DNA of 64,000 bases. Source: Atopsyche davidsoni (taxonomy: Eukaryota; Arthropoda; Insecta; Trichoptera; Hydrobiosidae). The stretch covers positions 15,128,001 through 15,192,000 of the forward strand of contig JAILWY010000012.1 of assembly GCA_022113835.1 (NCBI GenBank), given 5' to 3'. Numbering within the stretch: position 1 is the stretch's first letter; every line of letters begins with the position of its first letter. Below are positions 25,901-40,306 of the stretch, one piece after another. Below the pieces are notes generated by a model, which was not told the DNA's origin, ran no database searches, and worked only from the letters and a program-made list of their open reading frames with translations. The position numbers and the translations under genes are program-made.

Positions 25901-28900
25901 TTCAAAACCTAAAAACTAGTATTTAACCGTCACTTTCTTCCTAAATAGCTGTCAACCATTATCTTTTTACAAACAAAGAAATCACACGACTCTAGACAAA
26001 GAAACAAAACGTCGACTTTCGGTGATTACTGAAGTGATTAATGGCGTTTATAATGAGCTACATTGCATTTCTATATCTGACACACTAGAGGCACGCATCA
26101 TGGCGGATCTGGAAGCCGCTTTTGCAAAATGGACGACAAACCTTGAATATAAATCCGCACCCAGCGACTCTAGCTTTTTATTTCGTGCATATTTAGGCGT
26201 TTTAAAGGCCGCCTGGGTTATTAATTTATTTGTAAATGTGTGTATTTTCAAACTCGATGAGCCAACACACACCGGCTCAAACAAAACAGAATGAGGTAAA
26301 CTAAAATAATGTATTAAAAGCAATAAAAATTATTATTAAAAGTTTTATATTTTTTATTAGTATTAAATACACTGTGCCTCATAAGTCTCAATATCACTAA
26401 ATTTTATCTTTTTGAATATTTTTCATAGATTTCCCTTCTTTCATTATTATCATTTTTATTATTTTATAACGCATAAATACTCGACATATTTGTAAGAATA
26501 AAAAAATTATAACTGCCCTCTGATGATAGTATGACTTTTAAGACACCCGTTTATTGAATAAATGATAATATATTTCGACTTGCCATTTTCACGGACCGTG
26601 TAGCGTGGGAAGTGTTTACTGATGCTGATACTCTAATAAATCATCACAAAAATGATTCGTTCTCTTCATCAATAAGGAAGGATATTTTTTCACAGTAAAC
26701 ACTGTATATCCGGGAAGTCATAGTTACTTTGCTACGTGTATCAACAGGATGGATTTGCACGCTACTCTGTCACTATAATCACATGACAGTACAAACGATG
26801 CTTGAAATTTGAGAACAACAATGCAGATATATTGTAGATTACCTTACACGCCATACCTGTGTATAATTATATTTTTCGAAGATAAAAATAAATTATTAAA
26901 ATTATTAAAAAAAAAAAAAGATAATGTGTTATACCGGATATACGTTTTTCAACTATTGAAACTCAAACCGAGTGCTCAACTCAAACTCTTTTCTTATTGT
27001 AGTAAAACTTTTATCCTGTTCACTTAAATCTAAAATAAACATATAAGCATGTTCATAAAACATTACTGACGTATTTTAGAACTGGTCGTGTTTACGTTAC
27101 GCTATCACAGTATGCACTTAACCAAGTTGCCATTGTGCTTCTATTCAATTTGCTACTATCTCAACGCGGAAATATCCCTTGGCAGCCGGTTGCCTTACGC
27201 TTTGAATTAACTTTCAGTTTCTGGGTAAACGCCCCTAGAGCCTGCAACACCGAACGTACCACCCGGTGGCGCAACGAGCCTTTCGTTAGAGGCTTGGACA
27301 AGAAATTGTCCAATGTTGTAAGTTGCGATACTGCAGTAATGCCAGTGGAGCCCATGAACCGAAGTGCGGCCTACCACCTCAGCATTACCAGACTCCAGTA
27401 TCTGCTGATAATTGCTTGTTTTGTCCATTGCCAGGTCTTGCTGAAATTTCTATGTCACGCTTATTATAATGAATAATGAGGGCTTTAGCGAATAAGCGCT
27501 TTCGCAAGTTGCTACTTAAAAGAGAATTTATTTCAGCTTTTGTCTTTGGTGTAATTTTAGTTTTAGCAAGTAATTAATGGAGGCTTATATATTTGTCCTA
27601 CTTTAGTGGCATTCATTATCACAAAGGCTACCAAAAACAAACTACTGTTTTTAAGGAGAATATCATATTGTTCTTTTTATATTTTATACTTTTGATGACA
27701 ATTAACACACTAAAAGCAGGGCGGGTACTAGTACCCGTTTCGCGGACTACTGTCTGAGGCGGGGCGCGTATTAATACGTTTTTGAATGTGTTTACTCTAA
27801 AAGCGGCAGAAGGTCATTTTATTCTTTAGGTTTACAGCTCGAAATGTTTGTTTAGGACTCGTCAACGTTACTTCTACCAATACTGTCCAGTGATTCTGAA
27901 CAAAGTGACAATGAAGAAGTAGAGTGGTCAGATAATGATAATCCTCCAATTATTGAACAATTTTTAGGACAAAGTGGTGTTGTTGTGATGCCAAGTAATC
28001 CGCAAAGTGTGTATGAAGTGGTTCAACTTTTTATAGGAAACGATTTATTTGACTACATGCAAATCAAAAAGTGTATAGACTAGATTTCACACGGGCAATT
28101 TTACGCGAATTTCGTCTGCTTCGCACATCACTTTAGTCAATTTGGTACCCGCTTAAAGTGTGTTAATAACAACACAGTTTTTTAACCTTATAAGTACGTC
28201 TACTTGAAAAAACGATGTATAATTTATAATCGTAGATTTTAATAACAGATTCTTACGGTTTAATGTTTTATTTTCAGCCAAAGGACAGTCCAGGAAACGA
28301 AAGGATGGGACGTGTTCAGAGATCTGCCCACGAAGGCAGACAGTGGTTCCATGGCGAACCAGCAGTGCCTGGACTTCACCGTGAAGATGTGCAAGGTCCT
28401 CGCCTACATCTTCACCTTCATCATCGTCCTGGGCTCGGGAGTCATCTCGAAAGGAACTCTTCTCTTCATGACATCACAGATCAAGAGAGACAGACGGATA
28501 ACCTACTGCAACAAGCAACTCGGTAAGATCGCACGTATATATTTTTTAAATCTATTAAACAGGGTAGGAAAACGGCAATCAGTGGGCTCTGGATGATGGC
28601 CAGGGTTTTTGTAGTAAACTGCTGTGCCATACCTTGACCAGTGCTTAAAACTGTGTTCATAATTAAAATCTTAATCAGCGAAATACCGCAATATAAAAAA
28701 CCTAAATTATTATTGTTTTTGTTTTCCAGCTTTTCAAAAATTGTACAATTTTTTTTAAAATATCCACAAAATTGATATTCCCAAAATTTATTTCGTTAAA
28801 AATAGTCTATTAAGAAGATAAAATTAAATAAAAACCACTGCTTAATTACCTCAGATTTAACCAATAATAAATAAAAGTATAATTTATTTTTTACTGGAAT

Positions 28901-31900
28901 GCCAACCAGACATTCATGAAATAATAAAAATTGTGTAAATATTAAACAACATATAATACAATGAAAACAATTATTGATTCACAATACAAATGATAAATGC
29001 ACTTTTTAAGTTATAATTTATAGGTGTCAAAATAAAACAAATTTATGTTATACTTAACATAATAAAAGTCAAGAATGATACATAATTTAAAATATGAAAA
29101 AATGAATTGTATTTCCGATTAGCTGTGCATTTCACGCCTCGTCAAATGAATATCAAAATTTATCGGCAAATGAATAAATTTTATATGCATATAATTTATT
29201 TAATCAAATAATGGCTTTTGGCGTGTTAAATTTAAGTTTTAAATTGAGTAGCAGAGTTGGGTTAGTTTAGGATCAAAAGGGTTGTGAAAAAATGAAATAG
29301 CCTGCGGATCACTCAGTGTGGTTAAATTGTTACACGTTTTTGTTTTTATTAATTTAAAAATGATCGTTGATAACAACATCCTTGAAAAAATATATTTTCT
29401 CTTTGTACAGAAGGTATATCAGATAGCCAAAAAATATTTTTTCCATCGCGTGAATTCCTTCGATATTCTGCAAACTGCAGCAACATGACAATACCGCCTG
29501 TTTCTAAATTTGCAACAAAATCCATGCTTTATTACTGTGTAGTAAGAAGGTAAATACAATCTGCGTCAAAACGTAACTGCTTACAAAATAATTTAAAAAA
29601 GAAATAGCCTTTGTGAATTTAGAAACAACCATAAGCAGTGTTTGAGTTACAAATTAAATCAATTCGTTTTACGTTTATTAAGCACGCAGCTCGAACAAAT
29701 AACCTTGATTGTGAAAGATAATTCAGTTGCGATATAAAATATAACACATTGAATTTTTTAATAGTTTCCAACTCTAATACAAAGATTTGGCCTAACTTTA
29801 ACATACGCATTAACACATATTAGAATAATTGAAATCTAGTTGCTTTGTATTTTATGTACAAAAATTATCGATAGTTCCCAAAACATAAAATTTAAAACGA
29901 GATAGACAGTATTGAAAATTCGCAGGAGATTCACCAAATGTTATGTCACAAATGAGAGAGTCTTGTGTAGAAAGAAAACCCATGACGATGGTAAAAAACG
30001 TAAGGTCTCCTATTACAGTCCAAGGAAAAAAGGTCATTGGAAATAGGAAACTAAGGTAGATGCGGAATTCACGCCAGCGGCTGGATATCGGGAGAATAGT
30101 ATAATAGTAGAATAGTAGGACTGGCCCAGGATAAATATGTGCTCAGTGAAATGGTCACCAACCTCCTCTGAGGAAAGTCATTTGAAGAAGATGATGTCTG
30201 CCTCTGTTTAATAGCTTGGCTAAATACTCGTTTACTTTTTATCATGTTAACTTCTGGATCAGATGGTGGTTTACCTGTGGGCAGACATACCGGTCAGTCC
30301 GAAAGGTAATTACCACGTGGGCGCTAGTTCGTGTTCTGTAACGAGTGGGCACCCCATAGGTCAAGATGCCTTGTTTTTAATGCAGTTATGACTGCCATGC
30401 CATCATATAAAATGCATATTATACGCAGGTGTTTTAAAACTCATGGACCGAAAGCAATAGTGGGTGTCACCCATGCACTACATATTTGCAGTATTTAAAT
30501 TAGTTTTTATAATTCAGTACAAAAAGAATTTAGATAGATATGAAGTGACAAATTTTATTTTGAATGGTTACAATCTTCTGGGCTCCACCCATCTCAAAGC
30601 ACCGGTCTCCAAATCCTAAAGTGGATCTGACTTCGATCAAAAAAATTCTCGGCAGTTCTCTAAATCTCTCTACAATACTTTATCGTTAGCTGCTGTAATG
30701 CACTATTTTCTGTCCTTATCTACAAAGAGATTATTATAATTTTATTAATATATGTATGACAATATAAATTGTTTATTTATAAATTTGTAACTTCGTTGAT
30801 ACTTTTGAAGTATTAAATTTGTTTGTGGACTATAATTTATTGTATCTAGTAATTCATCACTAGACATGCTTTATAAAAATATCAGAAACCAATATGCAGC
30901 TATCCGATATTAAAAATACCGTTTAAATTAAAAACAAATAAAAAGAAAAAAAAATTATCACCACTAATTTTAAATATCTTTTGCGTCTAAAAAAGTAATA
31001 ATAACTACGCATAATTAAATAAATATTTTCTTTAAACTTTTCAGGACGAGATAAACAATATATCACAACACTCCCCGATTCTGAAAGGATAGCGTGGATG
31101 TGGTGCATCCTATTTGCCTTCATGGTTCCAGAAATCGGAGCTCTTATCCGATCCATCAGGATTTGTTTCTTCAAAAGTTGGAAACAACCGACATCAGGAC
31201 AATTCCTTTTGGTAAGTAGAATTTTTTAGTACCTTATATGGAAACTAATTTTAAAAAATCCATTATTTTTATTTATTTTTCAATTTTACAGGTGTTTCTT
31301 GTTGAGACGCTGCATACGATAGGTTTGGCACTTCTCTTCTTCGTGATATTGCCAGAGCTCGACGTAGTCAAAGGGGCCATGTTAACAAACTGCATGTGCT
31401 TCATACCTGGTGTTCTGGGTCTGTTGTCTCGCAGCAACAAGGAGTCAAAGCGCTTCGTGAAAGTCATCGTTGACCTTGCAGCCATCGCTGCCCAAGTCAC
31501 TGGCTTCGTTGTATGGCCCTTGCTCGATGACAGCCCTTCCCTGTGGTTGATTCCGGTCGCCTCTTTCTGCATATCTTTGGGATGGTGGGAAAACTACGTC
31601 TCCAAGAATAGTCCACTTGGTAAATATTCCATCATTTTTATCAAACCGATATGAATTTTAGTTTTAGTTTGGAAACATTAGTTTCCTATTGATTAGCAGA
31701 ATTAGTAAGACTGACCCAGGATAAATGTATTCAGTGAAATGGTTGCCAACCGCCTCTGAAGAGAGGCACTCAAAGAAGAAGATGCTTCCTATTGAAAAAC
31801 TTCAAAATATTTTTTTATGTAATAGTTAATGTTGTTATAATATGTGCGTGTGTTATCAATTTCAGGATTTATGAAAGTTCTTGGAAAAGTAAAAGCAGAA

Positions 31901-34900
31901 CTTTTGTACACAAGATATTTCACGTACATGTTCATATCTGTATGGAAAGTGATTGCGTTCTTTTGCTCTGTTCTTCTGATTCTTTGGATACAAGGGGAAA
32001 ACATCAGTGACTTCTTCGGCTTATTCCAAGAAGGCTTCGGTCCACACATTATCATTATTGAAGAGGTAATTATTAAAATAATTCAGATCACGTTAAATAA
32101 AATAATTTTACAGTTATTGAGCGTGTAAATTTAATAAATATCACCATTACAGATAAAAGCAGTACTGAGTGGAACTGTTTTACCAGATTTGTCTGATGTT
32201 ACCAAAACTGGAGATACTGTTGATATCTCCGCTTCTCACAACACCGCCATCTATGTCCTCCTCATTCAAATCTTTGCAGCCTATTTATGCTACGTGTTCG
32301 GAAAGTTTGCTTGCAAGATCCTTATACAAGGATTCAGCTACGCCTTCCCTGTAAATCTTACAATTCCAGTATCCATCTCGTTGCTCATCGCAGCTTGTGG
32401 TATCAGAAATGGAGATCCTTGCTTCTTCCAAGGGACGATTCCAGATTACTTATTCTTTGAAAGTCCACCAGGTACGTTGACATTTTTCATCAAATATTTT
32501 ATATTTTTCATAGAAGTTCGTTGAAAATATTTCATCCTAATATTTTTACTAAAAATAAAAGGTTTAAGATGATACTTTTACATGGTTTTCAAGTATTTAT
32601 TATAATTTATAATATATTTTAAGCTACCAAGTTTCTATTTATTTCATATTTTTAAGCACCACATTATTTTTGTTACAGTGTACTTTTTAAATGAATTCAT
32701 GTCTCGACAAATGGCATGGGTTTGGCTGCTTTGGCTGCTCTCACAAACATGGATCACTCTTCATATCTGGACACCAAAGTGTGAACGTTTGGCTTCAACA
32801 GAAAAACTTTTTGTGGTGCCTATGTACAATGCTCTTCTCATAGACCAGTCTTTGGGCTTGAACAGAAGATGTGACGATCAAACTGATGTGAAAACAGAGG
32901 TAATAATATTATTGAATTTGCTATATCTAGTTTTATATTGTTAAACTTCACATTTATTATTATTTTTTTAACTTAGGATTTGGCCGAAATTGAAAAAGAA
33001 AAAGGGGACGAATACTATGAAACTATATCTGTTCACACTGATGGATCTAACGCAACCCCAAGAACAGTAAAATCATCAGATCATATCACCAGGTACAATT
33101 TACATAAAATTTATCTAATAGTTTGGATGTTTTATTTTAATTTACCAAATATCTAATAAAATTTTTATTCTGATGAACAGTGGTCTTAAATACTTTTTTT
33201 TGTTTTAGAATTTATGCATGCGCTACTATGTGGCATGAAACTAAGGATGAAATGATTGAGTTCTTGAAGTCTATCTTGCGTCTTGATGAAGATCAATCTG
33301 CTAGGCGAGTTGCACAAAAATATCTCCGAGTTGTTGATCCTGACTATTACGAATTCGAAAGTAAATATATACATATTTATTGTTACAATTTCTAGGTTGA
33401 TTATTGAAATACTGTTTGATTTTCTGGTGGAAAAAATATTAAAACATCACACCTTTTCAGCTCACATTTTCCTCGATGATGCCTTTGAAATCTCTGATCA
33501 CAGTGATGATGACTCTCAAGTGAACATTTTCGTGAGACGATTAATTGGTACTATGGATGAAGCAGCTTCTGAGGTCCATCAGACTAACATCAGACTCAGG
33601 CCTCCCAAGAAATTACCCACACCTTATGGAGGACGCTTGGAATGGACGCTTCCGGGAAAAACGAAAATGGTTTGCCATCTGAAGGACAAGGATAAGATCA
33701 GGCACAGAAAGCGGTGGTCTCAGGTATTCAAGCTTTGTATTTAAAATTTATTGCTATTAATTAGGGCTGTGATTCAGATTTTCAAGTGGTTTTTATTGGT
33801 TCATTTATTTCTATTTCTTCTTTTAGGTCATGTACATGTACTATCTTCTGGGTCATAGACTCATGGAGCTCCCAATCTCCGTTGATCGTAAGGAAGTAAT
33901 GGCAGAAAACACCTATCTTTTAACTCTGGACGGAGACATTGATTTCCAACCTAATGCTGTACAACTCTTGGTTGATTTGATGAAGAAAAACAAGAACCTG
34001 GGAGCTGCTTGCGGTCGTATTCATCCTATTGGATCTGGTTAGACATTATTCTTTTTTATAAAAATATAAATGAATACTATAACAGCATAAAATAAACTAA
34101 AAATATTTTTCTAGGTCCAATGGTGTGGTATCAAATGTTTGAGTATGCTATTGGTCATTGGTTGCAAAAGGCCACCGAGCATATGATCGGCTGTGTACTC
34201 TGTAGCCCTGGATGCTTCTCACTCTTCAGAGGCAAAGCTCTTATGGACGACAACGTTATGAGGAAATACACTACCAGATCAGATGAAGCTAGGCATTACG
34301 TGCAATACGATCAAGGTTAGCTTACATTAATAATAAACAAATCAAACTGTCCATTGTCTACAACAGCAATTTGATAATAATGTCATTCATTAGATTATAA
34401 TTTTTTTATGATATGAATAGTTTTGTACTGAGATGTTCAATATTATATTTCTAGGGGAAGATCGTTGGTTATGCACTCTGATTCTTCAAAGAGGTTATCG
34501 AGTAGAATATTCTGCTGCTTCCGATGCTTACACTCATTGCCCTGAAGGTTTCAATGAATTCTACAACCAACGTCGTCGTTGGGTGCCCTCCACCATGGCT
34601 AATATATTTGATTTACTTATGGATTACAAAAAGACTGTTAAAATCAACGACAACATTTCGATGCCTTACATTTCTTATTTGGTATGTGCCTTACAATTAC
34701 TAATCCTTAGATATATAAAATCAATACTTCAGTATGTTTACAGTAAGAATATGTAACAGAAAGCAAATATATTACCATATCTTCTTTCTTTACATATCCA
34801 ATAATCAAAGTTATTAGATGCATACTTGAGTGAAATAGATAAAAAGTATATCCTCAGTTTTATATGCAAGTTAACGTATTATAATTTTATTAATTCAGAT

Positions 34901-37900
34901 GATGTTGATGGGTGGTACCATTCTTGGCCCTGGAACCATTTTCCTTATGTTGGTGGGAGCTTTTGTGGCTGCCTTCAAGATTGACAACTGGACTTCTTTT
35001 ACATACAATATTATTCCTATATTATTTTTCATGTTGGTTTGCTTTACATGTAAATCAGAAATACAGGTAAGAAGAATGTCCCATTTTTAAAGTCCCTTAT
35101 TTCTTGTTTTGCCTATATTTGTGTACTTGTCTCTGTTGTATCATTGTATATGTTAAGTGTATGTTGTGCTTGTTTTCTAGCTTCTGATTGCTCAAATGTT
35201 ATCTACTGGCTACGCTATGATAATGATGGCTGTGATTGTCGGTACAGCTCTCCAGTTGGGCGAGGATGGAATAGGTTCTCCATCTGCCATTTTCCTTATA
35301 GCGTTAACGAGTTCATTTCTTATAGCAGCCTGTCTTCATCCACAAGAGTTTTGGTGTATAGTTCCCGGTCTCATTTATCTCCTATCCATTCCTTCTATGT
35401 ACTTATTGTTAATCCTTTACTCTATCATCAACTTGAACGTTGTATCGTGGGGAACTCGTGAAGTTATTGCGAAAAAGACGAAGAAGGTTTGTTACTTCAA
35501 TTTTACCTCAAAAAAAAATGATGCTAGAAATTTATGGTGAAGGATAATGGTGGAGGTTTGTTCAAAAAGTATTTCTAATATTTGTACTCATCCCAAATAA
35601 TGTGGTGTTTGTTCTTCAATAGTTTGTCTCGATTATTTATTGTTGCATTGTGGTTAATGAAATGAAATTTTAAGTTTAAAGATAGATATTTTATTTTACT
35701 TGCATGCACATGTTCTTATCTATTTTGTTTCTTTTAACTAACAGTTATTCTTTGCTGGAATTATATCATCAGCATATGGTTTAATTATGATGGCTGTATT
35801 GGTCGGTCTTGGAATACAAATCTTTGAAGATGGTTGGCTCGCACCCTCCAGTTTGTTCCTCTTCATGGTGGCTGGTGAAATGGTTGTAGCAGCTTTACTA
35901 CATCCACAGGAGATATATTGTCTTCCAGCTATTATCATTTACTATATAACAGTACCAAGCATGTACCTTCTTTTAATAATCTTCTCACTATTTAACATGA
36001 ATAACGTAACTTGGGGTACCAGAGAAACAGTAGAAAAACAGAAAAAGAAAACACCTGAGGTAAATTTTCTAATTCTGACTAATTCTTATTGTCATTATTT
36101 TTAATATCTGAAGGCTTAAGGTTCAAAATATAATTAATACTTCATAGCTTGAAAAAGGCTATGCATGATGCACAATGTACATAAGCATGGGTTTTATTTA
36201 TTATTATAATTGAATACTAATACTTATTTAAAACATAATAAAAAAAAGATTTTATAATAATAGTTTAATGTGTTAAATAGGAAATGGAAAACGAAAAGAA
36301 GGAGGCTGAAGAGGCTCAGAAGAAAGCAAAAAATAAATCACTTCTTGGGTTCTTGTCTGGAGGTCAAGGAAACAACACCGATGAAAAAGGATCACTTGAA
36401 TTTTCTTTCGCTGGACTTTTTAAGTGCATGTTCTGCACTCACCCGGAGGGGGGAGAGGAGAGGGCTCATCTCATACACATTTCCGAGTCACTTAGTCAGC
36501 TGAACAAGAAAGTTGATACAGTAGAAAGGTAATCAAACATTTCGGACATATGTTTCAAGCCACAGATATAAATATAGGAATGCAAGCATTGTCTAGATTC
36601 ATAACTTTTGTAAAATGTAAAAGCAACTTATAAAATTTTCGAAAACTTATTAAATTTACAGAGCACTAGACATGAGTGGACTAGTATCTAATAATCCCAG
36701 CAACAGAAGACGGTCAACTTTAGGTGGAAATAATTTACAACATGGCTTGGGAGCCGTTAATGAAGATGCAGAAAATGATATGAATGGCTCGGATTCTGAA
36801 ACACTGTCAACAGTGCCAAAGGTATTATCTCACTTTGTTGTTTCTGGTTTTTTTGTATTAGTGCTTATAGATATATTAATGCTTATAACTTTTCTACCGA
36901 CACTATTAGGAGGAGAGAGATGATCTGTCGAATCCATATTGGATTGATGATCCTGAACTTCGCAAGGGTGAGGTTGATTTCCTTTCCGATGCTGAATTAC
37001 AATTCTGGACTGACCTCTTGGCCCGTTACTTGTATCCCATTGAGGATAATAAAGATGAACAGGTATAAATAAGAACTTTATTCTCATAATGAAGTAATTA
37101 ATCAGCCTTTACAGAATTAAAAAAAAGATGTATAATTTTATTATTATCTATATTTGTTACTTAATACTTGCTTTTACAGGTTAAAATATGTACCTTACAA
37201 TTTTTTTTTTCGTGGAAAATCAAATCACAACTATTATCATCCCGAGGAATGTTTTCAGCTTTTCACTGTAGTCATATTTATATTGCTCGTTGAAGAATTC
37301 CCCCATGTAAAATAAATTGCCACTGATTTTAGAAACGTATTGCCCAAGACTTGAAAGACTTGCGAGATCGCTCTGTGTTTGGCTTCTTTATGCTGAATGC
37401 ATTGTTTGTTCTTATCGTATTCCTACTGCAGTTAAATAAGGACCTTCTCCATATTAAGTGGCCACTTGGAGTCAAAACAAATATTACTTACGATGAAGGC
37501 ACCCAAGAGGTAATGTCAGCCAATAACCCGACAGGTGTCAGTATTCAAAAAAGACGGTGGAAAGCTGAAAGAGAAAGTTTGCTCCGAACCCTTCCGACAA
37601 GTAATCTCCTCGTCGTTCTTGAATTCTGACCATTTTTTGTGTGTAATAATTGTTGTTTGTTTTGTGCCGTCTTCCAGGCTCGCATTGCAGCCGACTTGGT
37701 GGAGCTACGGAATAAATCAGTTTTTGCATTCTTCATGTTCAATGCGTTGTTTATTTTGATCGTATTTTTACTGCAACTGAATAAAGACCAACTCCACGTG
37801 GATTGGCCACTGGGAATAAAGACAAATATCACGTACATCGAGGAGACAGGAGAGGTACAGCTGCGCGCAGCTGGGTTCTATAATGACTGTTCTGGCCTCT

Positions 37901-40306
37901 TCTTACCTAACGATCTAAACTCTAATGTGTCCATTAAGACAAGACCTGCATCCTTCTGGCACAATTGCATGCAAATGCAAGTGTTCATAACAACTGGGAC
38001 TGGCTTCTTTATTTGTGCATCTGACTAATGGGACAGGGTACAACTGATCCCACATCCGGTCATCATCATTGTCATTCCATTACTTTCCCGTAAAAAATCC
38101 TATCATTCATCATCATTCATTAGCGTGACATTGAGAATAAGTTCTAGTAAGATTAACTGCTATTTTACAATACAGATTTCATTCAAAGATTGAGTTATTT
38201 TCGTAAATAAGTTTTATGTTTTTAATCAATAGTATCTCAAAAGATCATTAAAATATGATGAATTTGGATAATATGTAAGAGTTAAATGATTAGTTTTATT
38301 ATTTTAACTAAGCATCATACATTTTCGCTCCATTTATTCAATTTGTCATCACATCATTAGTAACAATCATTTTCATCGACTTGATGAGAAATCATCTTCA
38401 GTAAATAAAAAACTGAAAGACTTTCTATCCGAGAATCCATGACTAAAGAGGAATATTTTATTTAAAAATTTGTCCTAGAAATCAGGCAAATTTATTTCTA
38501 TATTTACTTTATTATATTGACTGACACTAAGGACGTTGACAATACCTAAATGACGTATAGTTATTTATAAATTTAGTGAAGATATATAATATTATTATTC
38601 TAATGGGGATATTATTACTACGTTTATATAATGGGGAAAAAATATTCAATAATCACGCTTATGACTCCTTTTTACCATGGCTCCTTTGTTTATAATCTTC
38701 AAAGTACCTTTTAATATTTATTTGGTATATAAAGATTCAATGTTTTTATTTTTTATTCTTGTATGTAATTAAAAATATCCTTTCTGTTATGGTGAACATA
38801 TTTTATTATTATTTATGTTAAATATTTTTATTATTTATTATGAAGTGGAAGATTCAAAGAATTAAATCGAGGTGTTGGACTTTACCTATTTCAATTTGGT
38901 GAAGACAAACTTTTCACAAACAATGTGTATTATGTATCATACACAGCACCCAGTACTAATATTCTTGTATAATAATGAAATAGGATGATGGAATATGAAA
39001 TAAAGTATACAACAACTATTTAACCAATGCAATACTAATCACATTATATTATTATTTTAGGTCCACATTTCAAAAGAATACTTACAGCTAGAGCCCATTG
39101 GATTGGTATTTGTGATGTTCTTCGCCCTTATTTTAGTTATTCAATTCACCGCTATGTTGTTCCATCGTTTTGGAACTCTTTCACATATTTTGGCTTCAAC
39201 AGAACTCGATTGGTACTTCTCAAAGAAGGTAAATAATTACTGCGCAATCTTTAACTTTCTAAAAGATTAATCCAGTAAATGGATAATAATAATTTATTTT
39301 ATTAGGCTGAAGATTTATCTCAAGATGCATTATTGGATAGAAATGCAGTTGCAATCGTCAAAGATTTGCAAAAACTTAATGGAATTGATGACGACTACGA
39401 AAATGATTCTGGTTCAGGACCTGATAGAGTGGGCAGGCGAAGAACCGTTCACAATCTAGAAAAAGCTCGGCAGAAGAAAAGGCACATAGGAACATTAGAC
39501 GTTGCCTTCAAGAAGCGATTCTTCAATCTGAATAATACAGAGGGTGCAGGTAAAAAACTTTCAATTTATTATTGTATTAACAGAAAAATTTATATTTACA
39601 TGTAACATTAAAAATATTTTTTTATTGTATCACCAGGAACACCAGTTTTGAACAGAAAAATGACAATGAGAAGAGAGACCATCAAAGCACTTGAAGTACG
39701 ACGAAACTCAATCATGGCAGAAAAGAGAAAATCGCAAATGCAAACCCTTGGAGCAAACAATGAATATGGCGTATCTGGAGTAAGTTCAAGAATCTGGTCT
39801 TATAATTATTCTAACCTTATTAGTAAATTTACTCTAGATTGGTTACAAGATTAAAAAAACCATAACACTACAATATAAATCGGACAACTCAGTAGCCTCT
39901 TCAATGAAAATAATAGTACTGGCTAACGTATATATAGCAATTGATACTCAACAATACAATAATTTTGTCACTCTACCTCCTGAGATATATTTTATGTGTC
40001 TGAAATAAAAAAGACTAAAAATCTTCTTTTCTGGAAATAACAAATTATTGTTACAAAGTTATAACCACTACAAATCATCATGTGTTATTGATTCCATAAT
40101 TTTTATTTGTCTAGTTGAATAACAACCCAGGAGTACCGGTGCGCAGTATGAGGACATCAAACGCAGGCATATCTGTAAAGGACGTGTTTCCCGACCCAGG
40201 TGGTCAGGTGAACAGAGCGTATGATCCTGATATGGGTGATGACGAAACTAACTCAGTAAGACTAGGCCGACAGAGTCAAGTCACGTTCCAAGGAAGATAT
40301 CAATGA
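1828..40306 (+). CDS. CHS1: Chitin synthase 1 (CHS-A), whole spliced gene
   Basis: Chitin synthase 1 is a plasma-membrane family-2 glycosyltransferase that polymerises UDP-GlcNAc into chitin for cuticle and trachea. The hand-joined 2a/16a/20a form has 1568 residues, close to the roughly 1565 usual for Lepidoptera. Order seen: acidic N-terminus; about ten N-terminal membrane helices (residues 70-490); catalytic domain with TLDGDIDF (D738, D740), GEDRW (841-845) and QRRRW (879-883); five-helix cluster (917-1058); cytosolic linker; NPYWIDD motif; a final helix pair (exons 20 and 21); and a basic cytosolic tail. Three positions have two exon choices: 2a/2b, 16a/16b and 20a/20b. All junctions are GT-AG and keep phase. 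QRRRW and EDR are the family's signature. Insects have a second gene, CHS2, for gut chitin; the 20a/20b pair and the sequence place this one as CHS1. An untranslated exon 1 is inferred upstream because exon 2a starts at a splice acceptor. Confidence 0.97.
9954..9981. repeat. Perfect 12-bp inverted repeat with 4-base loop
   Basis: AAGGATATTATC, then TCCT, then GATAATATCCTT: the arms are exact reverse complements. It sits in a block that is richer in GC than its surroundings within the CHS1 first intron. It could be a hairpin or a dimeric binding site with GATA cores; function is not shown. Confidence 0.7.
10195..10505. promoter_or_regulatory. GC-rich intronic block, candidate enhancer or promoter
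   Basis: This block stands out from AT-rich intron by its CpG content and lack of stop codons on both strands (108 codons open on plus, 83 on minus). Neither translation shows a known domain or a splice context, so the openness is best explained by base composition. It ends with CAAAATGGCGGCGGG, like a Pho/YY1-type motif. I regard it as candidate regulatory DNA, not a gene. Confidence 0.35.
12944..13140 (-). repeat. Dispersed repeat, copy 1 (other copy at 45440-45592)
   Basis: The reverse complement of this stretch aligns with 45440-45592. Shared pieces include AGGGGTAT-CTTA-AATAC, TATGTGGCT-TCCCCTG and AAAATATGTGTAAAAAAA followed by GTTGAAGAAT. The two copies lie 32 kb apart in opposite orientation. 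I do not recognise the element class; it has no visible terminal inverted repeats. Confidence 0.6.
14225..14460. promoter_or_regulatory. Less AT-rich intronic block, candidate regulatory DNA
   Basis: A block of mixed composition with E-box-like CACCTGGTG and CAGCTG words and ATCGATCGGTGATGCAT just upstream (about 14165). It is open on both strands for 67-84 codons but shows no domain or splice context. Candidate regulatory sequence only. Confidence 0.25.
17365..17387. repeat. AT dinucleotide microsatellite
   Basis: About eleven uninterrupted AT/TA units in intronic sequence. A simple-sequence repeat with no sign of function. Confidence 0.9.
18743..18796 (-). mobile_element. LINE 3-prime end fragment, reverse orientation
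   Basis: The reverse complement reads CTCAGTGAAATGGTCGC, then CCTCTGAGAAGAG and an AT-rich end. This matches the tails at 30120-30200, 31697-31785, 47430-47806, 49618-49715 and 52115-52222. Only the extreme end of the element is present. Confidence 0.6.
18908..19189. mobile_element. pogo-like non-autonomous DNA transposon
   Basis: The left end CAGTAAAACGTCGATATAAC and right end CACTGTTTTACCG are inverted relatives (CAGTAAAAC against CGGTAAAAC), flanked on both sides by TA, the target duplication of the Tc1/mariner/pogo group. The end words, with further copies of ATAACGGAC / TTAACGGAC inside, resemble pogo/Tigger termini. At 282 bp it carries no transposase; overlapping open frames are by-products of the A/T runs. 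Confidence 0.7.
19440..19873 (+). promoter_or_regulatory. Candidate promoter and 5-prime leader of the exon 2b transcript
   Basis: A CpG-rich block (19440-19620) stands in AT-rich intron just upstream of start exon 2b, then a poly-A run (19680-19700) and a mixed leader to 19873. Two short upstream ATGs precede the main start. ATG at 19836 is followed by one codon and TAG. ATG at 19845 opens a frame that overlaps the main start out of frame. Both have T at -3 (weak), whereas the main ATG at 19874 is strong. Alternatively part of the leader is intronic: a possible acceptor TAATATTTTAG ends near 19751. The transcription start cannot be placed from sequence. Confidence 0.45.
19874..20004 (+). CDS. 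CHS1: CHS1 exon 2b: alternative start exon, 44 residues
   Basis: ATG in strong context (GCAACATGG) opens 43 codons starting [17 protein letters not shown] and ending in a Tyr/Ser/Asn-rich stretch ([18 protein letters not shown]). The donor at 20005 is GTAATA. It stops in phase 2 (last two bases AG), exactly as exon 2a does, so it splices in frame to exon 3 and again gives serine there. It therefore replaces the acidic 2a N-terminus. Alternative 2a/2b start exons with separate promoters are reported for Ostrinia furnacalis CHSA. The frame from 19845 ends in phase 1 and cannot splice in frame, so 19874 is preferred. Confidence 0.8.
21274..21395. mobile_element. TCTACACACG-family element, degenerate copy
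   Basis: It starts GCCGTCTACACACGATGCACC and later reads GGGACGCTATTGACTG then GCAACCGG-like/GTTGCAAGTTG words. This matches the better preserved copy at 23434-23597, where the same words form inverted ends. Probably a non-autonomous DNA transposon. Confidence 0.5.
23434..23597. mobile_element. TCTACACACG-family MITE with long inverted ends
   Basis: The left arm (about 23434-23482) carries GCAATAAATTGTGCCAC, AACTTGCAG and CCAATAGTGTC. The right arm (about 23539-23597) carries their reverse complements: GACACTATTGACTAGCTGCAAGTTGG, then GATTTGTTGCTACGTGTGTAGAGGC. Arms of about 50 bp with a short centre and no coding capacity make this a MITE. Single arms of the same family occur at 57704-57775 and 62371-62430. 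The target duplication was not resolved. Confidence 0.65.
26020..26290. promoter_or_regulatory. Intronic block of higher GC, candidate regulatory DNA
   Basis: Both strands are open for 90-91 codons, which is unusual in AT-rich intron, but the translations have no known domain and no matching splice phase. Contains GGTGATTACTGAAGTGATTA (two GATTA cores) and CATGGCGGAT. Candidate enhancer; a coding role is not excluded. Confidence 0.25.
27125..27475. other. GC-richer block of unknown nature, possible repeat
   Basis: Both strands are open over most of this block (113 codons on plus from 27135; 64 and 73 on minus). It includes TGGACAAGAAATTGTCCA, an 18-bp perfect palindrome (27296-27313), and tracts such as CCACCCGGTGGC. 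The composition and palindrome suggest a dispersed element or regulatory block. I could not assign it, and no second copy was seen in the window. Confidence 0.3.
27702..28166 (+). mobile_element. piggyBac-like transposon, internally deleted
   Basis: TTAA flanks both ends, and the inverted ends read TTAACACACTAAAAGC (left) and GCTTAAAGTGTGTTAA (right), the hallmark of piggyBac-group elements. The 465 bp keep only the start of a transposase frame (see 27844-28083). It ends 111 bp before the exon 3 acceptor. GGGTACTAGTACCC is a palindrome inside the left end. Confidence 0.85.
27844..28083 (+). pseudogene. piggyBac transposase N-terminal remnant
   Basis: The frame ATG at 27844 is broken by TAG at 27853-27855. 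It then reads about 75 codons to TAG at 28081-28083. The fragment has an acidic stretch ([14 protein letters not shown]) and then [12 protein letters not shown] and [15 protein letters not shown], like the start of the DDE_Tnp_1_7 transposase domain of piggyBac proteins. The catalytic region is missing, so it cannot be active. Confidence 0.8.
28278..28522 (+). CDS. CHS1: CHS1 exon 3: first shared exon, residues 33-115
   Basis: Acceptor TTTTATTTTCAG. It reads [18 protein letters not shown], typical of insect CHS1 just before the first membrane helix, then helix 1 ([17 protein letters not shown]) and a short loop with TYCNKQL. It enters in phase 2 and leaves in phase 1 at GTAAGA, so both 2a and 2b can join it. 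Confidence 0.95.
28523..31044. other. Intron 3 of CHS1, with a LINE remnant
   Basis: 2.5 kb of AT-rich intron. A decayed LINE C-terminal end occupies 29941-30200. No extra CHS1 exon was found. Around 30240-30400 there is a less AT-rich stretch (GGTGGTTTACC, TACCACGTGGGCG) that may be another old repeat. Confidence 0.55.
29941..30200 (+). mobile_element. LINE C-terminal and 3-prime remnant
   Basis: It reads TATGTCACAAATGAGAGAG, a gap, AAGGTCTCCTATTAC, GGTCATTGGAAA, then GACTGGCCCAGGATA and AATGGTCACCAACCTCCTCT. These match the fuller copy at 47430-47806 in the same order. The frame is broken many times. Confidence 0.7.
31045..31211 (+). CDS. CHS1: CHS1 exon 4, residues 115-170
   Basis: Encodes the loop and helix 2 ([18 protein letters not shown]) and ends with [12 protein letters not shown]. 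Enters phase 1, leaves phase 0 (donor GTAAGT). Strongly conserved in insect chitin synthases. Confidence 0.95.
31292..31619 (+). CDS. CHS1: CHS1 exon 5, residues 171-280
   Basis: Largest shared exon here (328 bp). It contains four hydrophobic segments: [35 protein letters not shown], a helix around [15 protein letters not shown], and [15 protein letters not shown], followed by [11 protein letters not shown]. Phase 0 in, phase 1 out (GTAAAT). Confidence 0.95.
31697..31785 (+). mobile_element. LINE 3-prime end fragment in CHS1 intron 5
   Basis: AAGACTGACCCAGGATAAAT, then AATGGTTGCCAACC and GAAGAGAGGCACTCAAAGAA: the same tail as 52115-52222 and the other copies. It lies in the short intron between exons 5 and 6, 78 bp downstream of exon 5. 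Confidence 0.7.
31866..32065 (+). CDS. CHS1: CHS1 exon 6, residues 280-346
   Basis: Reads [20 protein letters not shown], then helix [20 protein letters not shown], then the loop [13 protein letters not shown]. Phase 1 in, phase 0 out (GTAATT). Confidence 0.95.
32153..32471 (+). CDS. CHS1: CHS1 exon 7, residues 347-453
   Basis: Two membrane helices ([20 protein letters not shown] and [19 protein letters not shown]) with the extracellular-type loop [20 protein letters not shown]. Phase 0 in, phase 1 out (GTACGT). Confidence 0.95.
32679..32899 (+). CDS. CHS1: CHS1 exon 8, residues 453-526
   Basis: Helix [20 protein letters not shown], then [20 protein letters not shown], where the chain enters the cytosol, and [11 protein letters not shown]. 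Phase 1 in, phase 0 out (GTAATA). Confidence 0.95.
32977..33092 (+). CDS. CHS1: CHS1 exon 9, residues 527-565
   Basis: Charged cytosolic linker before the catalytic domain ([19 protein letters not shown]). Phase 0 in, phase 2 out (AG/GTACAA). Confidence 0.93.
33209..33360 (+). CDS. CHS1: CHS1 exon 10, start of catalytic domain, residues 565-616
   Basis: Carries the conserved [12 protein letters not shown] motif that opens the chitin synthase catalytic region, then [20 protein letters not shown]. Phase 2 in, phase 1 out (GTAAAT). Confidence 0.96.
33461..33723 (+). CDS. CHS1: CHS1 exon 11, catalytic domain, residues 616-703
   Basis: Reads [20 protein letters not shown], later [19 protein letters not shown] and a basic end ([12 protein letters not shown]). 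Part of the nucleotide-sugar binding fold. Phase 1 in, phase 0 out (GTATTC). Confidence 0.96.
33827..34037 (+). CDS. CHS1: CHS1 exon 12 with DGD motif, residues 704-774
   Basis: Contains [15 protein letters not shown]738 and D740 correspond to the metal/UDP-binding aspartates of family-2 glycosyltransferases. It ends CGRIHPIGS. Phase 0 in, phase 1 out (GTTAGA). Confidence 0.97.
34115..34315 (+). CDS. CHS1: CHS1 exon 13, acceptor-site region, residues 774-841
   Basis: Reads [20 protein letters not shown], then [19 protein letters not shown], both invariant stretches of chitin synthases near the growing-chain end. Phase 1 in, phase 1 out (GTTAGC). Confidence 0.97.
34455..34681 (+). CDS. CHS1: CHS1 exon 14 with EDR and QRRRW, residues 841-916
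   Basis: [20 protein letters not shown] holds the catalytic-base EDR motif, and [14 protein letters not shown] is the chitin synthase signature that binds the growing chain. It ends ISMPYISYL at the start of the five-helix cluster. Phase 1 in, phase 0 out (GTATGT). Confidence 0.97.
34899..35066 (+). CDS. CHS1: CHS1 exon 15, channel helices 1-2, residues 917-972
   Basis: Two hydrophobic helices, [20 protein letters not shown] and [12 protein letters not shown], joined by a short loop, then TCKSEIQ. These are the first two helices of the five-helix cluster. Phase 0 on both sides, so it can join either 16a or 16b. The leading ATG codons are not a start. Confidence 0.96.
35181..35486 (+). CDS. 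CHS1: CHS1 exon 16a, channel helices 3-5 (usual form), residues 973-1074
   Basis: This is the sequence known from CHS1 proteins: [89 protein letters not shown]. It encodes the last three helices of the five-helix cluster. The helix from SIPSMY to NLNV is the region where benzoylurea and etoxazole resistance changes map in other arthropods. 306 bp, phase 0 on both sides. The acceptor is pyrimidine-rich; the donor GTTTGT is weaker than most donors of this gene, which would suit regulated use. A homologous second copy follows 258 bp downstream (16b). Confidence 0.97.
35745..36059 (+). CDS. CHS1: CHS1 exon 16b, alternative channel helices 3-5
   Basis: A second version of exon 16: 315 bp, phase 0 on both sides, acceptor TTTCTTTTAACTAACAG, donor GAG/GTAAAT. 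It aligns to 16a with no gap over 102 residues, about 49 identities by hand count, plus three extra residues (TPE) at the end. Kept: [25 protein letters not shown]. Changed: [10 protein letters not shown] becomes [10 protein letters not shown], and a glutamate ([12 protein letters not shown]) sits where helix 4 of 16a has serine. Open frame, intact splice sites and family-specific conservation show that it is an exon under selection. Phase and homology suggest mutual exclusion with 16a; inclusion of both would stay in frame but add three helices. I know of no published description. Confidence 0.9.
36281..36528 (+). CDS. CHS1: CHS1 exon 17, cytosolic linker, residues 1075-1157
   Basis: Starts with a charged, coiled-coil-like stretch ([20 protein letters not shown]), then [26 protein letters not shown] and a second heptad-like end ([16 protein letters not shown]). 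Insect CHS1 has a coiled coil after the five-helix cluster. Phase 0 in, phase 2 out (AG/GTAATC). Confidence 0.95.
36662..36821 (+). CDS. CHS1: CHS1 exon 18, variable linker, residues 1157-1210
   Basis: [20 protein letters not shown], then an acidic Ser/Asn-rich stretch ([20 protein letters not shown]). Low-complexity cytosolic linker. RRRST looks like a basic phosphorylation site; this is inference. Phase 2 in, phase 0 out (GTATTA). Confidence 0.93.
36910..37062 (+). CDS. CHS1: CHS1 exon 19, residues 1211-1261
   Basis: [20 protein letters not shown], then [18 protein letters not shown]: the NPYWI(D/E)D and WxxLLxRYLYP motifs precede the alternative exon in all insect CHS1 proteins. Phase 0 on both sides (donor GTATAA). 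Confidence 0.95.
37333..37509 (+). CDS. CHS1: CHS1 exon 20a (literature 19a), residues 1262-1320
   Basis: First of the known mutually exclusive pair. It has a cytosolic lead ([14 protein letters not shown]), helix [20 protein letters not shown], then [18 protein letters not shown] with an N-glycosylation sequon (NIT). 177 bp, phase 0 on both sides, donor GTAATG, rather plain acceptor CACTGATTTTAG. Exons 19a and 19b give tissue- and stage-specific CHS1 forms in many insects. Confidence 0.96.
37510..37677 (+). promoter_or_regulatory. Intron between 20a and 20b, unusually open and GC-richer
   Basis: 168 bp. The frame of exon 20a stays open for 39 more codons to TGA at 37627-37629, which is long for this AT-rich genome. 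The stretch is not AT-rich like the other introns. It probably carries splicing control sequence; a read-through protein is also possible but has no family support. Confidence 0.35.
37678..37854 (+). CDS. CHS1: CHS1 exon 20b (literature 19b), residues 1262-1320
   Basis: Second member of the pair, exactly the same length (177 bp) and phase as 20a. It reads [14 protein letters not shown], helix [20 protein letters not shown], then [18 protein letters not shown]. Differences from 20a are concentrated before the helix and after it. Donor GAG/GTACAG is directly followed by a 16-bp palindrome. In other insects the 19b form is linked to trachea and early stages. Confidence 0.96.
37855..38034 (+). 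promoter_or_regulatory. Candidate splicing control block after exon 20b
   Basis: The first 170 bases of this 1.2-kb intron are GC-richer than the rest and keep the 20b frame open for 57 codons, to TAA at 38026-38028. It begins with the palindrome CAGCTGCGCGCAGCTG (37858-37873) inside the donor region and contains TGCATG (37966-37971), the Rbfox-type (UGCAUG) site. The rest of the intron, to 39060, is AT-rich with nothing recognised. Confidence 0.4.
39061..39228 (+). CDS. CHS1: CHS1 exon 21, last membrane helix, residues 1321-1376
   Basis: [20 protein letters not shown], then helix [19 protein letters not shown] and [15 protein letters not shown]. Pairs with the helix of exon 20 to form the C-terminal two-helix unit. 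Phase 0 on both sides (GTAAAT). Confidence 0.95.
39306..39549 (+). CDS. CHS1: CHS1 exon 22, cytosolic tail, residues 1377-1458
   Basis: Tail with [20 protein letters not shown], then a basic stretch ([19 protein letters not shown]) and [12 protein letters not shown], all typical of insect CHS1. Phase 0 in, phase 1 out (GTAAAA). Confidence 0.94.
39637..39779 (+). CDS. CHS1: CHS1 exon 23, cytosolic tail, residues 1458-1505
   Basis: Basic tail ([20 protein letters not shown], then [13 protein letters not shown]). Phase 1 in, phase 0 out at GTAAGT. Confidence 0.93.
40115..40306 (+). CDS. CHS1: CHS1 exon 24, C-terminus and stop
   Basis: Starts [20 protein letters not shown], continues [12 protein letters not shown] and ends [12 protein letters not shown], then TGA at 40304-40306. 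The [13 protein letters not shown] ending fits lepidopteran CHS1. Phase 0 in. Confidence 0.95.
   Translation: MNNNPGVPVRSMRTSNAGISVKDVFPDPGGQVNRAYDPDMGDDETNSVRLGRQSQVTFQGRYQ

What the first reader, a model, noticed from the sequence alone, without database searches (positions are those of the whole stretch)
35181..36059. A third alternative exon pair in CHS1: two versions of channel helices 3-5
Seen: exons 35181-35486 and 35745-36059 lie in tandem, both with intact splice sites and phase 0 on each side. They align without gaps over 102 residues at about 48 percent identity. The second keeps the family motifs [13 protein letters not shown] and WGTRE. Known: insect CHS1 has alternative exons 2a/2b and 19a/19b; I know of no report of an alternative exon for this part. 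Inference: the cell can swap three of the five helices next to the QRRRW catalytic exon, which form the chitin exit path, so the isoforms could differ in chain release, partner binding or tissue. The low identity suggests an old duplication.
Basis: partly seen in the sequence, partly recalled or inferred. Interest (0 to 1): 0.92.

Follow-up and report, generated by a model that had tools for sequence, protein, structure and literature searches.

The report
Ancient third alternative chitin-synthase exon
The only chitin synthase gene detected in this insect's genome carries two versions of one membrane segment side by side, and the second version, seen also in gene models of a cricket, stick insects, a thrips, bees, ants and other Hymenoptera, a lobster and a crab, resembles the segment of the separate gut-type chitin synthase of other insects, so one gene may be able to make both kinds of enzyme.

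Summary
Exons 35181-35486 (16a) and 35745-36059 (16b) are intact, phase 0/0, with AG/GT borders and 49/102 identical residues; codon positions 1 and 2 are conserved, position 3 close to random. The gene is CHS1, nearest a caddisfly. The pair is not a local oddity: 12 of 231 database proteins in hand hold a 16a-like and a 16b-like copy in the same slot, in five other orders. In exon trees 16b groups with CHS2-type (gut-type) exons: 99/99 in the full set, 100/100 in a set without long branches; a duplication within this lineage is rejected. For thrips and stick insects a separate duplication is not excluded. A beetle CHS2-type protein matches only this gene in the 370.7 Mb genome, and prefers 16b in this slot, so no CHS2 was detected. 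Most likely 16b replaces 16a, giving CHS1 a CHS2-type TM3-TM4-IF3 segment. Against strict swapping: a bee and a wasp model join both exons while using one exon 19. No RNA data could be examined. Ten open-access searches showed no report of this pair.

The parts
35181..35486 (+). exon 16a of CHS1 (canonical version; TM3, TM4, IF3 and SWG loop by homology)
   Evidence: 90% identical to Arctopsyche CHS1
35745..36059 (+). exon 16b, alternative version of the same segment, CHS2-type sequence
35487..35744 (+). 258-nt intron between 16a and 16b
34455..34681 (+). QRRRW catalytic exon; its peptide has one match in the genome
34899..35066 (+). exon just upstream of 16a (TM1-TM2 by order after QRRRW, inferred)
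36281..36528 (+). exon just downstream, in frame after 16a or 16b
37333..37509 (+). known-type alternative exon 19a (177 nt, 59 aa)
   Evidence: kind described for other insects in PMC2561029 and PMC6355952 (passages)
37678..37854 (+). known-type alternative exon 19b (177 nt, 59 aa)
28291..40306 (+). extent of the chitin synthase gene as seen here (first match of a CHS2-type protein to the stop codon; exons before 32153 were not modelled)

Best explanation
16b is a working, ancient alternative exon of CHS1. The splicing machinery takes either 16a or 16b between the exon ending at 35066 and the exon starting at 36281, so the same catalytic domain gets one of two versions of TM3, TM4, the interface helix IF3 and the SWG loop. 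16b is the CHS2-type version. Shown: both exons are intact and constrained at the protein level, CHS1 models of five other orders have a like pair in the same slot, and 16b groups with CHS2-type exons. Inferred: that one replaces the other, and that the b enzyme exports or hands over chitin in the CHS2 (gut) manner. Not shown: expression of 16b in this species.
For: Intact frame, splice borders, phases and codon-position pattern. Both copies in the same slot in 12 of 231 database proteins in hand, after dropping one ostracod model with an exact repeat. Three proteins whose core falls in CHS1 carry a b-type segment alone: Ampulex P0161, Anabrus P0016, Neodiprion P0007. P0016 matches the Anabrus 16a protein P0153 in 42-49 of 50 residues in the 18 full windows before residue 951, but in 21 of 50 at 1001-1050, inside exon 16. 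Exon tree: b plus CHS2-type rows plus Artemia 99/99; 100/100 in a 34-row set that keeps 4 b rows. Window core is sister to Arctopsyche CHS1, SH-aLRT 97. The beetle CHS2-type protein P0009 prefers 16b to 16a, 65% and 137.9 bits against 43% and 88.8 bits. W and G of the SWG motif are kept (SWG in 16a, TWG in 16b); W742A abolishes PsChs1 activity (PMC9556331, passages).
Against: No RNA evidence was available. Frame is kept if both exons join. P0185 (Diachasmimorpha) and P0186 (Megachile) join both 16 exons while using one exon 19, which suggests inclusion rather than replacement there. Nine of the 12 double models also fuse 19a and 19b, as does Ampulex P0161, so these are predictions that do not respect exclusion. 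Thrips, ant, Ampulex and stick-insect b copies are only 47-55% identical to the window's 16b, and the thrips, ant and Ampulex copies are as close to 16a (51-53%); their place rests on a tree with long branches. The 16b acceptor scores low on a small in-gene matrix (-0.5; 19a's scores -3.2). The protein database is clustered at 90%, so b-only isoforms are hidden and absences weak.
Confidence: 0.67

Rival explanations
1. 16b is a cassette exon added after 16a. The long isoform has TM3-TM4-IF3 twice; because IF3 does not cross the membrane, an even number of crossings is added and the downstream topology survives.
For: Joining both keeps the frame. P0185 and P0186 join both 16 exons but use one exon 19. 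IF3 is an interface helix in PsChs1 (PMC9556331, passages).
Against: Three CHS1-type proteins have only the b-type segment, as do the 13 CHS2-type rows of the exon tree. The segment carries the W of the SWG motif, which would then be present twice.
Confidence: 0.19
2. Origin rival: 16b was copied into CHS1 from a CHS2 gene (exon transfer or conversion), rather than CHS1 and CHS2 inheriting it from one gene that had both exons. This concerns origin, not present use.
For: b rows are not one clade in the full exon tree (AU p 0.0099); b and CHS2-type rows are intermixed. In the core tree the CHS2-type rows lie outside a CHS1 group that includes chelicerates (support only 81), and chelicerate rows have an a-like segment.
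Against: Without long rows neither a single b clade (p 0.139) nor a single CHS2-type clade (p 0.45) is rejected. Presence in lobster and crab models puts any transfer very far back.
Confidence: 0.3
3. The pair arose more than once: some lineages (thrips, stick insects, perhaps Hymenoptera) duplicated 16a on their own, and only the window and crickets hold the CHS2-type exon.
For: Holding a and b of Frankliniella together is not rejected (p 0.061), nor for stick insects (p 0.093); Hymenoptera is borderline (p 0.042). Thrips, ant and Ampulex b copies are equally distant from a and b.
Against: Their b copies score higher with the b profile than with the a profile (the profile was built partly from Timema, Frankliniella, Acromyrmex and Ampulex copies, but not from Diachasmimorpha, Megachile, Dryococelus or the decapods). 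Rejected for decapods (p 0.004), Gryllus (p 7e-12) and the window (p 0.0002).
Confidence: 0.25
4. 16b is an unused relic that has not yet decayed.
For: No RNA evidence available; weak acceptor.
Against: 68% identity to Gryllus 16b, an intact 105-codon frame, and conserved first and second codon positions point to long-term selection.
Confidence: 0.05
5. Recent tandem duplication of 16a in this lineage, or an assembly artefact.
For: Adjacent copies.
Against: Holding win_a and win_b together is rejected (p 2.6e-6; p 0.0002); 48% identity excludes an assembly duplicate.
Confidence: 0.01

Closest known systems
Exon 19a/19b (6a/6b in Aedes) of insect CHS1
   Same: Tandem, equal-phase alternative exons in the same gene, each with a membrane helix
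   Different: 177 nt, 59 aa, penultimate helix, 78% (Aedes, PMC2561029) and 74.6% (Sogatella, PMC6355952) identical (passages); the pair here is 306/315 nt, next but one after the QRRRW exon, 48% identical, and holds the SWG motif
CHS2 / CHSB, the midgut chitin synthase of insects
   Same: Exon-16 segment of CHS2-type proteins groups with 16b and P0009 maps to it best. 'CHS2-type' is my label from the core tree; no reference CHS2 such as Tribolium's was in hand
   Different: CHS2 is a separate gene; here the segment is an exon of CHS1, and no CHS2 gene was detected
Exon 2a/2b of lepidopteran CHSA
   Same: Another alternative region of the same gene (recalled; a 2011 Ostrinia title was seen only in a reference list)
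   Different: N-terminal; not this segment
PsChs1 of Phytophthora sojae (7wjm)
   Same: 16b residues 7-93 and 16a residues 13-93 align to PsChs1 659-745 and 666-745
   Different: Weak similarity (E 0.0026 and 0.013); oomycete enzyme, used only to place helices

Membership tests
Insect CHS1 (CHSA) | Core sequence groups with CHS1, not CHS2 | tested here: met
   46-row core tree, quick method: window sister to Arctopsyche (97), inside the insect CHS1 group
Insect CHS1 (CHSA) | Tandem 177-nt alternative exons 19a/19b | tested here: met
   37333-37509 and 37678-37854, both 177 nt
Insect CHS1 (CHSA) | Chitin synthase domain with EDR, QRRRW and WGTRE | tested here: met
   PF03142 E 4.6e-31 for an 814-aa part of the 16b isoform; motifs
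Mutually exclusive exon pair | Tandem homologous exons, same phase, both intact | tested here: met
Mutually exclusive exon pair | Transcripts contain one or the other, not both | not testable with these tools
   No RNA data; protein models give both patterns
Mutually exclusive exon pair | A device that forces the choice (frame break, very short intron, paired intron RNA) | tested here: inconclusive
   Frame kept if joined; intron 258 nt; inverted repeats no more than chance: 4 observed, shuffle mean 3.06, 36 of 100 shuffles as high. Protein-bound control was not testable
CHS2 | Exon-16 segment of CHS2 type | tested here: met
   For 16b only
CHS2 | Separate gene with CHS2-type core | tested here: not met
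   All 20 matches of the CHS2-type protein P0009 lie in this one gene, whose core is CHS1

The most novel reading that the evidence does not exclude
The split between cuticle and gut chitin synthase began as a splice choice: an ancestral arthropod gene carried both membrane segments, CHS2 arose as a copy that kept only b, many CHS1 genes later lost b, and this caddisfly, with no detectable CHS2, still makes its gut (peritrophic) chitin with CHS1-16b. CHS1-type proteins with only b in Anabrus and Neodiprion would be later repeats of the same route.
Probability: 0.33. Interest if true: 0.88.

Novelty: new variant of a known kind. Interest (0 to 1): 0.73.

Why it matters
CHS1 is an essential enzyme and an insecticide target, and the papers seen here describe its isoforms as differing in one 59-residue exon. 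An ancient second membrane segment just after the catalytic part, matching the gut-type enzyme, would mean that isoform counts, knock-down designs and CHS1/CHS2 trees have missed a major variable. It also offers a direct test of how cuticle and gut chitin synthesis separated: swap one exon and see what changes.

Tried and rejected
Recent duplication of 16a in this lineage: rejected. Chance open frame: rejected. Long-branch artefact joining b and CHS2: the tree was repeated without 14 of 48 rows (nine long or partial b rows, Artemia, four fast CHS2-type rows); the grouping rose to 100/100, but this control keeps only 4 b rows (window, Gryllus, Anabrus copy, Neodiprion copy) and so says nothing for the thrips, hymenopteran, stick-insect and decapod copies. 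In-lineage duplication was then tested for each: decapods p 0.004, Hymenoptera p 0.042, thrips p 0.061, stick insects p 0.093, Gryllus p 7e-12, window p 0.0002. RNA pairing across the introns as a selector: one 12-nt pair links 35499-35510 with the 16b donor, 36056-36067, but the number of pairs is no higher than in shuffles. The ostracod model P0190 was dropped because its two copies are an exact repeat. Absence of 16b elsewhere is only weakly tested: of 25 CHS1 models that fuse 19a and 19b (among 168 with a 16a match of 80% or more), 9 hold 16b and 16 do not: lepidopteran, dipteran, beetle, mayfly and bug models, and also the ant Pseudoatta P0166 and the bee Eufriesea P0209, whose relatives have it. 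The last two protein searches found 502 and 730 proteins and listed 120 each; the rest were not seen. The exon tree used 48 chosen rows and the core tree 46, out of 233 sequences in hand; the Timema douglasi, Acromyrmex heyeri and Trachymyrmex b copies were left out as truncated or near-copies. In the exon trees the myriapod Chamberlinius sits beside the b group (96/86), and the decapod a rows do too with weak support, so the outgroup is not clean. Structure prediction was not tried.

Full report
What is there. The window lies at C12:15128001-15192000 of a 370.7 Mb assembly in 80 contigs and holds a chitin synthase gene on the plus strand. From the exon at 32153 to the stop at 40306, the exons modelled join in one open frame, with AG/GT at every internal border. 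Codon positions 1 and 2 are 52% and 78% identical against 26% and 31% expected from composition; position 3 is 37% against 26%. That is the mark of two coding segments kept by protein-level selection after their silent sites had largely been randomised. Joining 16a, 16b, both or neither leaves the frame open, so the frame does not force a choice.

Whose gene it is. In the search with the C-terminal part, the six highest scores go to lepidopteran models that fuse or carry both 19a and 19b; next is the caddisfly Arctopsyche grandis (order Trichoptera). Over the 626-residue core Arctopsyche has the highest identity of proteins covering all of it, 88%, and over exon 19a 93%. In a 46-row quick tree of the core the window is its sister (SH-aLRT 97). 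I take the species for a caddisfly or close relative; it was not identified further.

The pair elsewhere. A search with the 16b part of the spliced product returned 63 proteins, topped by Gryllus bimaculatus CHS1, whose model has a 16a-like stretch (89%) followed at once by a 16b-like stretch (68%). A search with that Gryllus double segment put other double models on top. A profile scan of the 233 sequences in hand (231 database proteins and the two window exons) found 13 with two exon-16 domains. One (ostracod P0190) is an exact repeat and was dropped. The other 12 are Gryllus, Timema (2), Dryococelus, Frankliniella, Diachasmimorpha, Megachile, Acromyrmex (2), Trachymyrmex, Homarus and Chionoecetes: Orthoptera, Phasmatodea, Thysanoptera, Hymenoptera and Decapoda (looked up for four of these genera; the others recalled). 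In each the first copy scores higher with the a profile and the second with the b profile, but both profiles were built partly from these rows; Diachasmimorpha, Megachile, Dryococelus, Homarus and Chionoecetes are independent of them. Nine of the 12 also fuse 19a and 19b; P0185, P0186 and P0188 do not. The names of P0185 and P0186 carry isoform numbers, so joint use of 16a and 16b may be real there.

Either-or evidence. Three proteins whose core falls in CHS1 carry only a b-type segment: Ampulex P0161, Anabrus P0016 and Neodiprion P0007. Anabrus is the most telling. P0016 and P0153 agree in 42-49 of 50 residues in the 18 full windows before residue 951, but in 21 of 50 at 1001-1050, inside exon 16, as if a copied gene had settled on b. 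These are database models, not transcripts examined here.

Relation to CHS2. 'CHS2-type' below means proteins whose core lies outside the CHS1 group (support for that group is only 81); no reference CHS2 was in hand. In a 48-row tree of 98 columns, all 13 b rows and all 13 CHS2-type rows, with Artemia, form one group (99/99); the a rows lie outside, with chelicerate rows, while the myriapod row sits next to the b group. Holding all a and b rows together is rejected (p 0.0001); b plus CHS2-type is accepted (p 0.548); b alone is rejected as a clade (p 0.0099). Without 14 long, partial or fast rows, the 4 b rows left plus 9 CHS2-type rows have 100/100; win_a with win_b is rejected at p 2.6e-6; neither a b clade (p 0.139) nor a CHS2-type clade (p 0.45) is excluded. 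Separate in-lineage duplication is rejected for the window, Gryllus and decapods, borderline for Hymenoptera (p 0.042), and not rejected for thrips (p 0.061) or stick insects (p 0.093). So the window's and the crickets' 16b are firmly of CHS2 type; the other copies are probably, not certainly, of the same origin. Which came first, a gene with both exons or a transfer between genes, stays open. Eleven positions separate a from b plus CHS2-type rows (a twelfth listed is a gap column); the window's 16b has the commonest b/CHS2 residue at 8 of them, among them a glutamate at position 45, in the second helix, where all 17 a rows have serine. It departs from an otherwise conserved glycine at position 63.

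No CHS2 detected. The QRRRW exon has one match in the genome. The beetle CHS2-type protein P0009 has 20 matches, all in this gene; in the exon-16 slot it scores 137.9 bits (65%) on 16b and 88.8 bits (43%) on 16a. The tool scores only its best candidates (15 here), and completeness of the assembly is not given, so this is absence of detection. Papers describe CHS1 as the cuticle enzyme and CHS2 as the peritrophic enzyme, and probable CHS2 loss in Hemiptera (PMC6355952 and PMC9631950, passages).

What the segment does. 16b and 16a align to residues 659-745 and 666-745 of PsChs1, ending at the SWG motif 741-743. [quoted passage not shown] 16a has SWG, 16b TWG. By order after QRRRW, exon 16 is TM3, TM4, IF3 and the SWG loop; this placement is inference. 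A swap would change part of the membrane region and its brace while leaving the glycosyltransferase domain unchanged.

Known or new. Passages in two papers state that insect CHS1 has two variants differing in a 59-residue exon (PMC2561029, PMC6355952), and one that D. citri isoforms differ only in one alternative exon (PMC9631950). The Aedes gene has one 1,320-bp exon before 6a; since 16a to the end of the exon before 19a is 867 nt here, that exon should contain the 16a segment and leave no place for a separate 16b (inference). A search of one crab CHS paper for 'splic' found nothing (PMC11900205). Ten searches of open-access papers showed no report of this pair (listings, with passages read in nine papers). 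Most subscription papers are not in that library.

Verdict. A real, ancient, CHS2-like alternative exon in CHS1. My estimate that it is a functional exon is about 0.95; that it replaces 16a about 0.7; that it serves gut chitin here about 0.33.

Noticed in passing
G000 whole genome; window 28291-39554: One chitin synthase gene is detectable; no CHS2 was found in this assembly.
   Followed up: partly
P0016 (Anabrus simplex): A near-copy of the CHS1 protein P0153 that carries a b-type exon-16 segment: possible gene copy fixed on exon b.
   Followed up: partly
P0007 (Neodiprion lecontei): Named chs-2-like but its core falls among hymenopteran CHS1, with a b-type exon 16.
   Followed up: partly
P0069 (Bombyx mori chitin synthase A model): Model of 1492 aa lacks exon 16 and holds both 19a and 19b.
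   Followed up: no
P0187 (Homarus): The lobster model also has two exon-19-like copies, so the known 19a/19b pair may be older than insects.
   Followed up: no
35499-35510 with 36056-36067: A 12-nt complementary pair could mask the 16b donor site; pairs of this kind are not above chance in number.
   Followed up: yes
about 30105-30200 and 31700-31785: Two similar stretches look by eye like copies of a short interspersed repeat.
   Followed up: no
about 27720-28150: Stretch that by eye looks like a remnant of a piggyBac-like element (recalled pattern).
   Followed up: no
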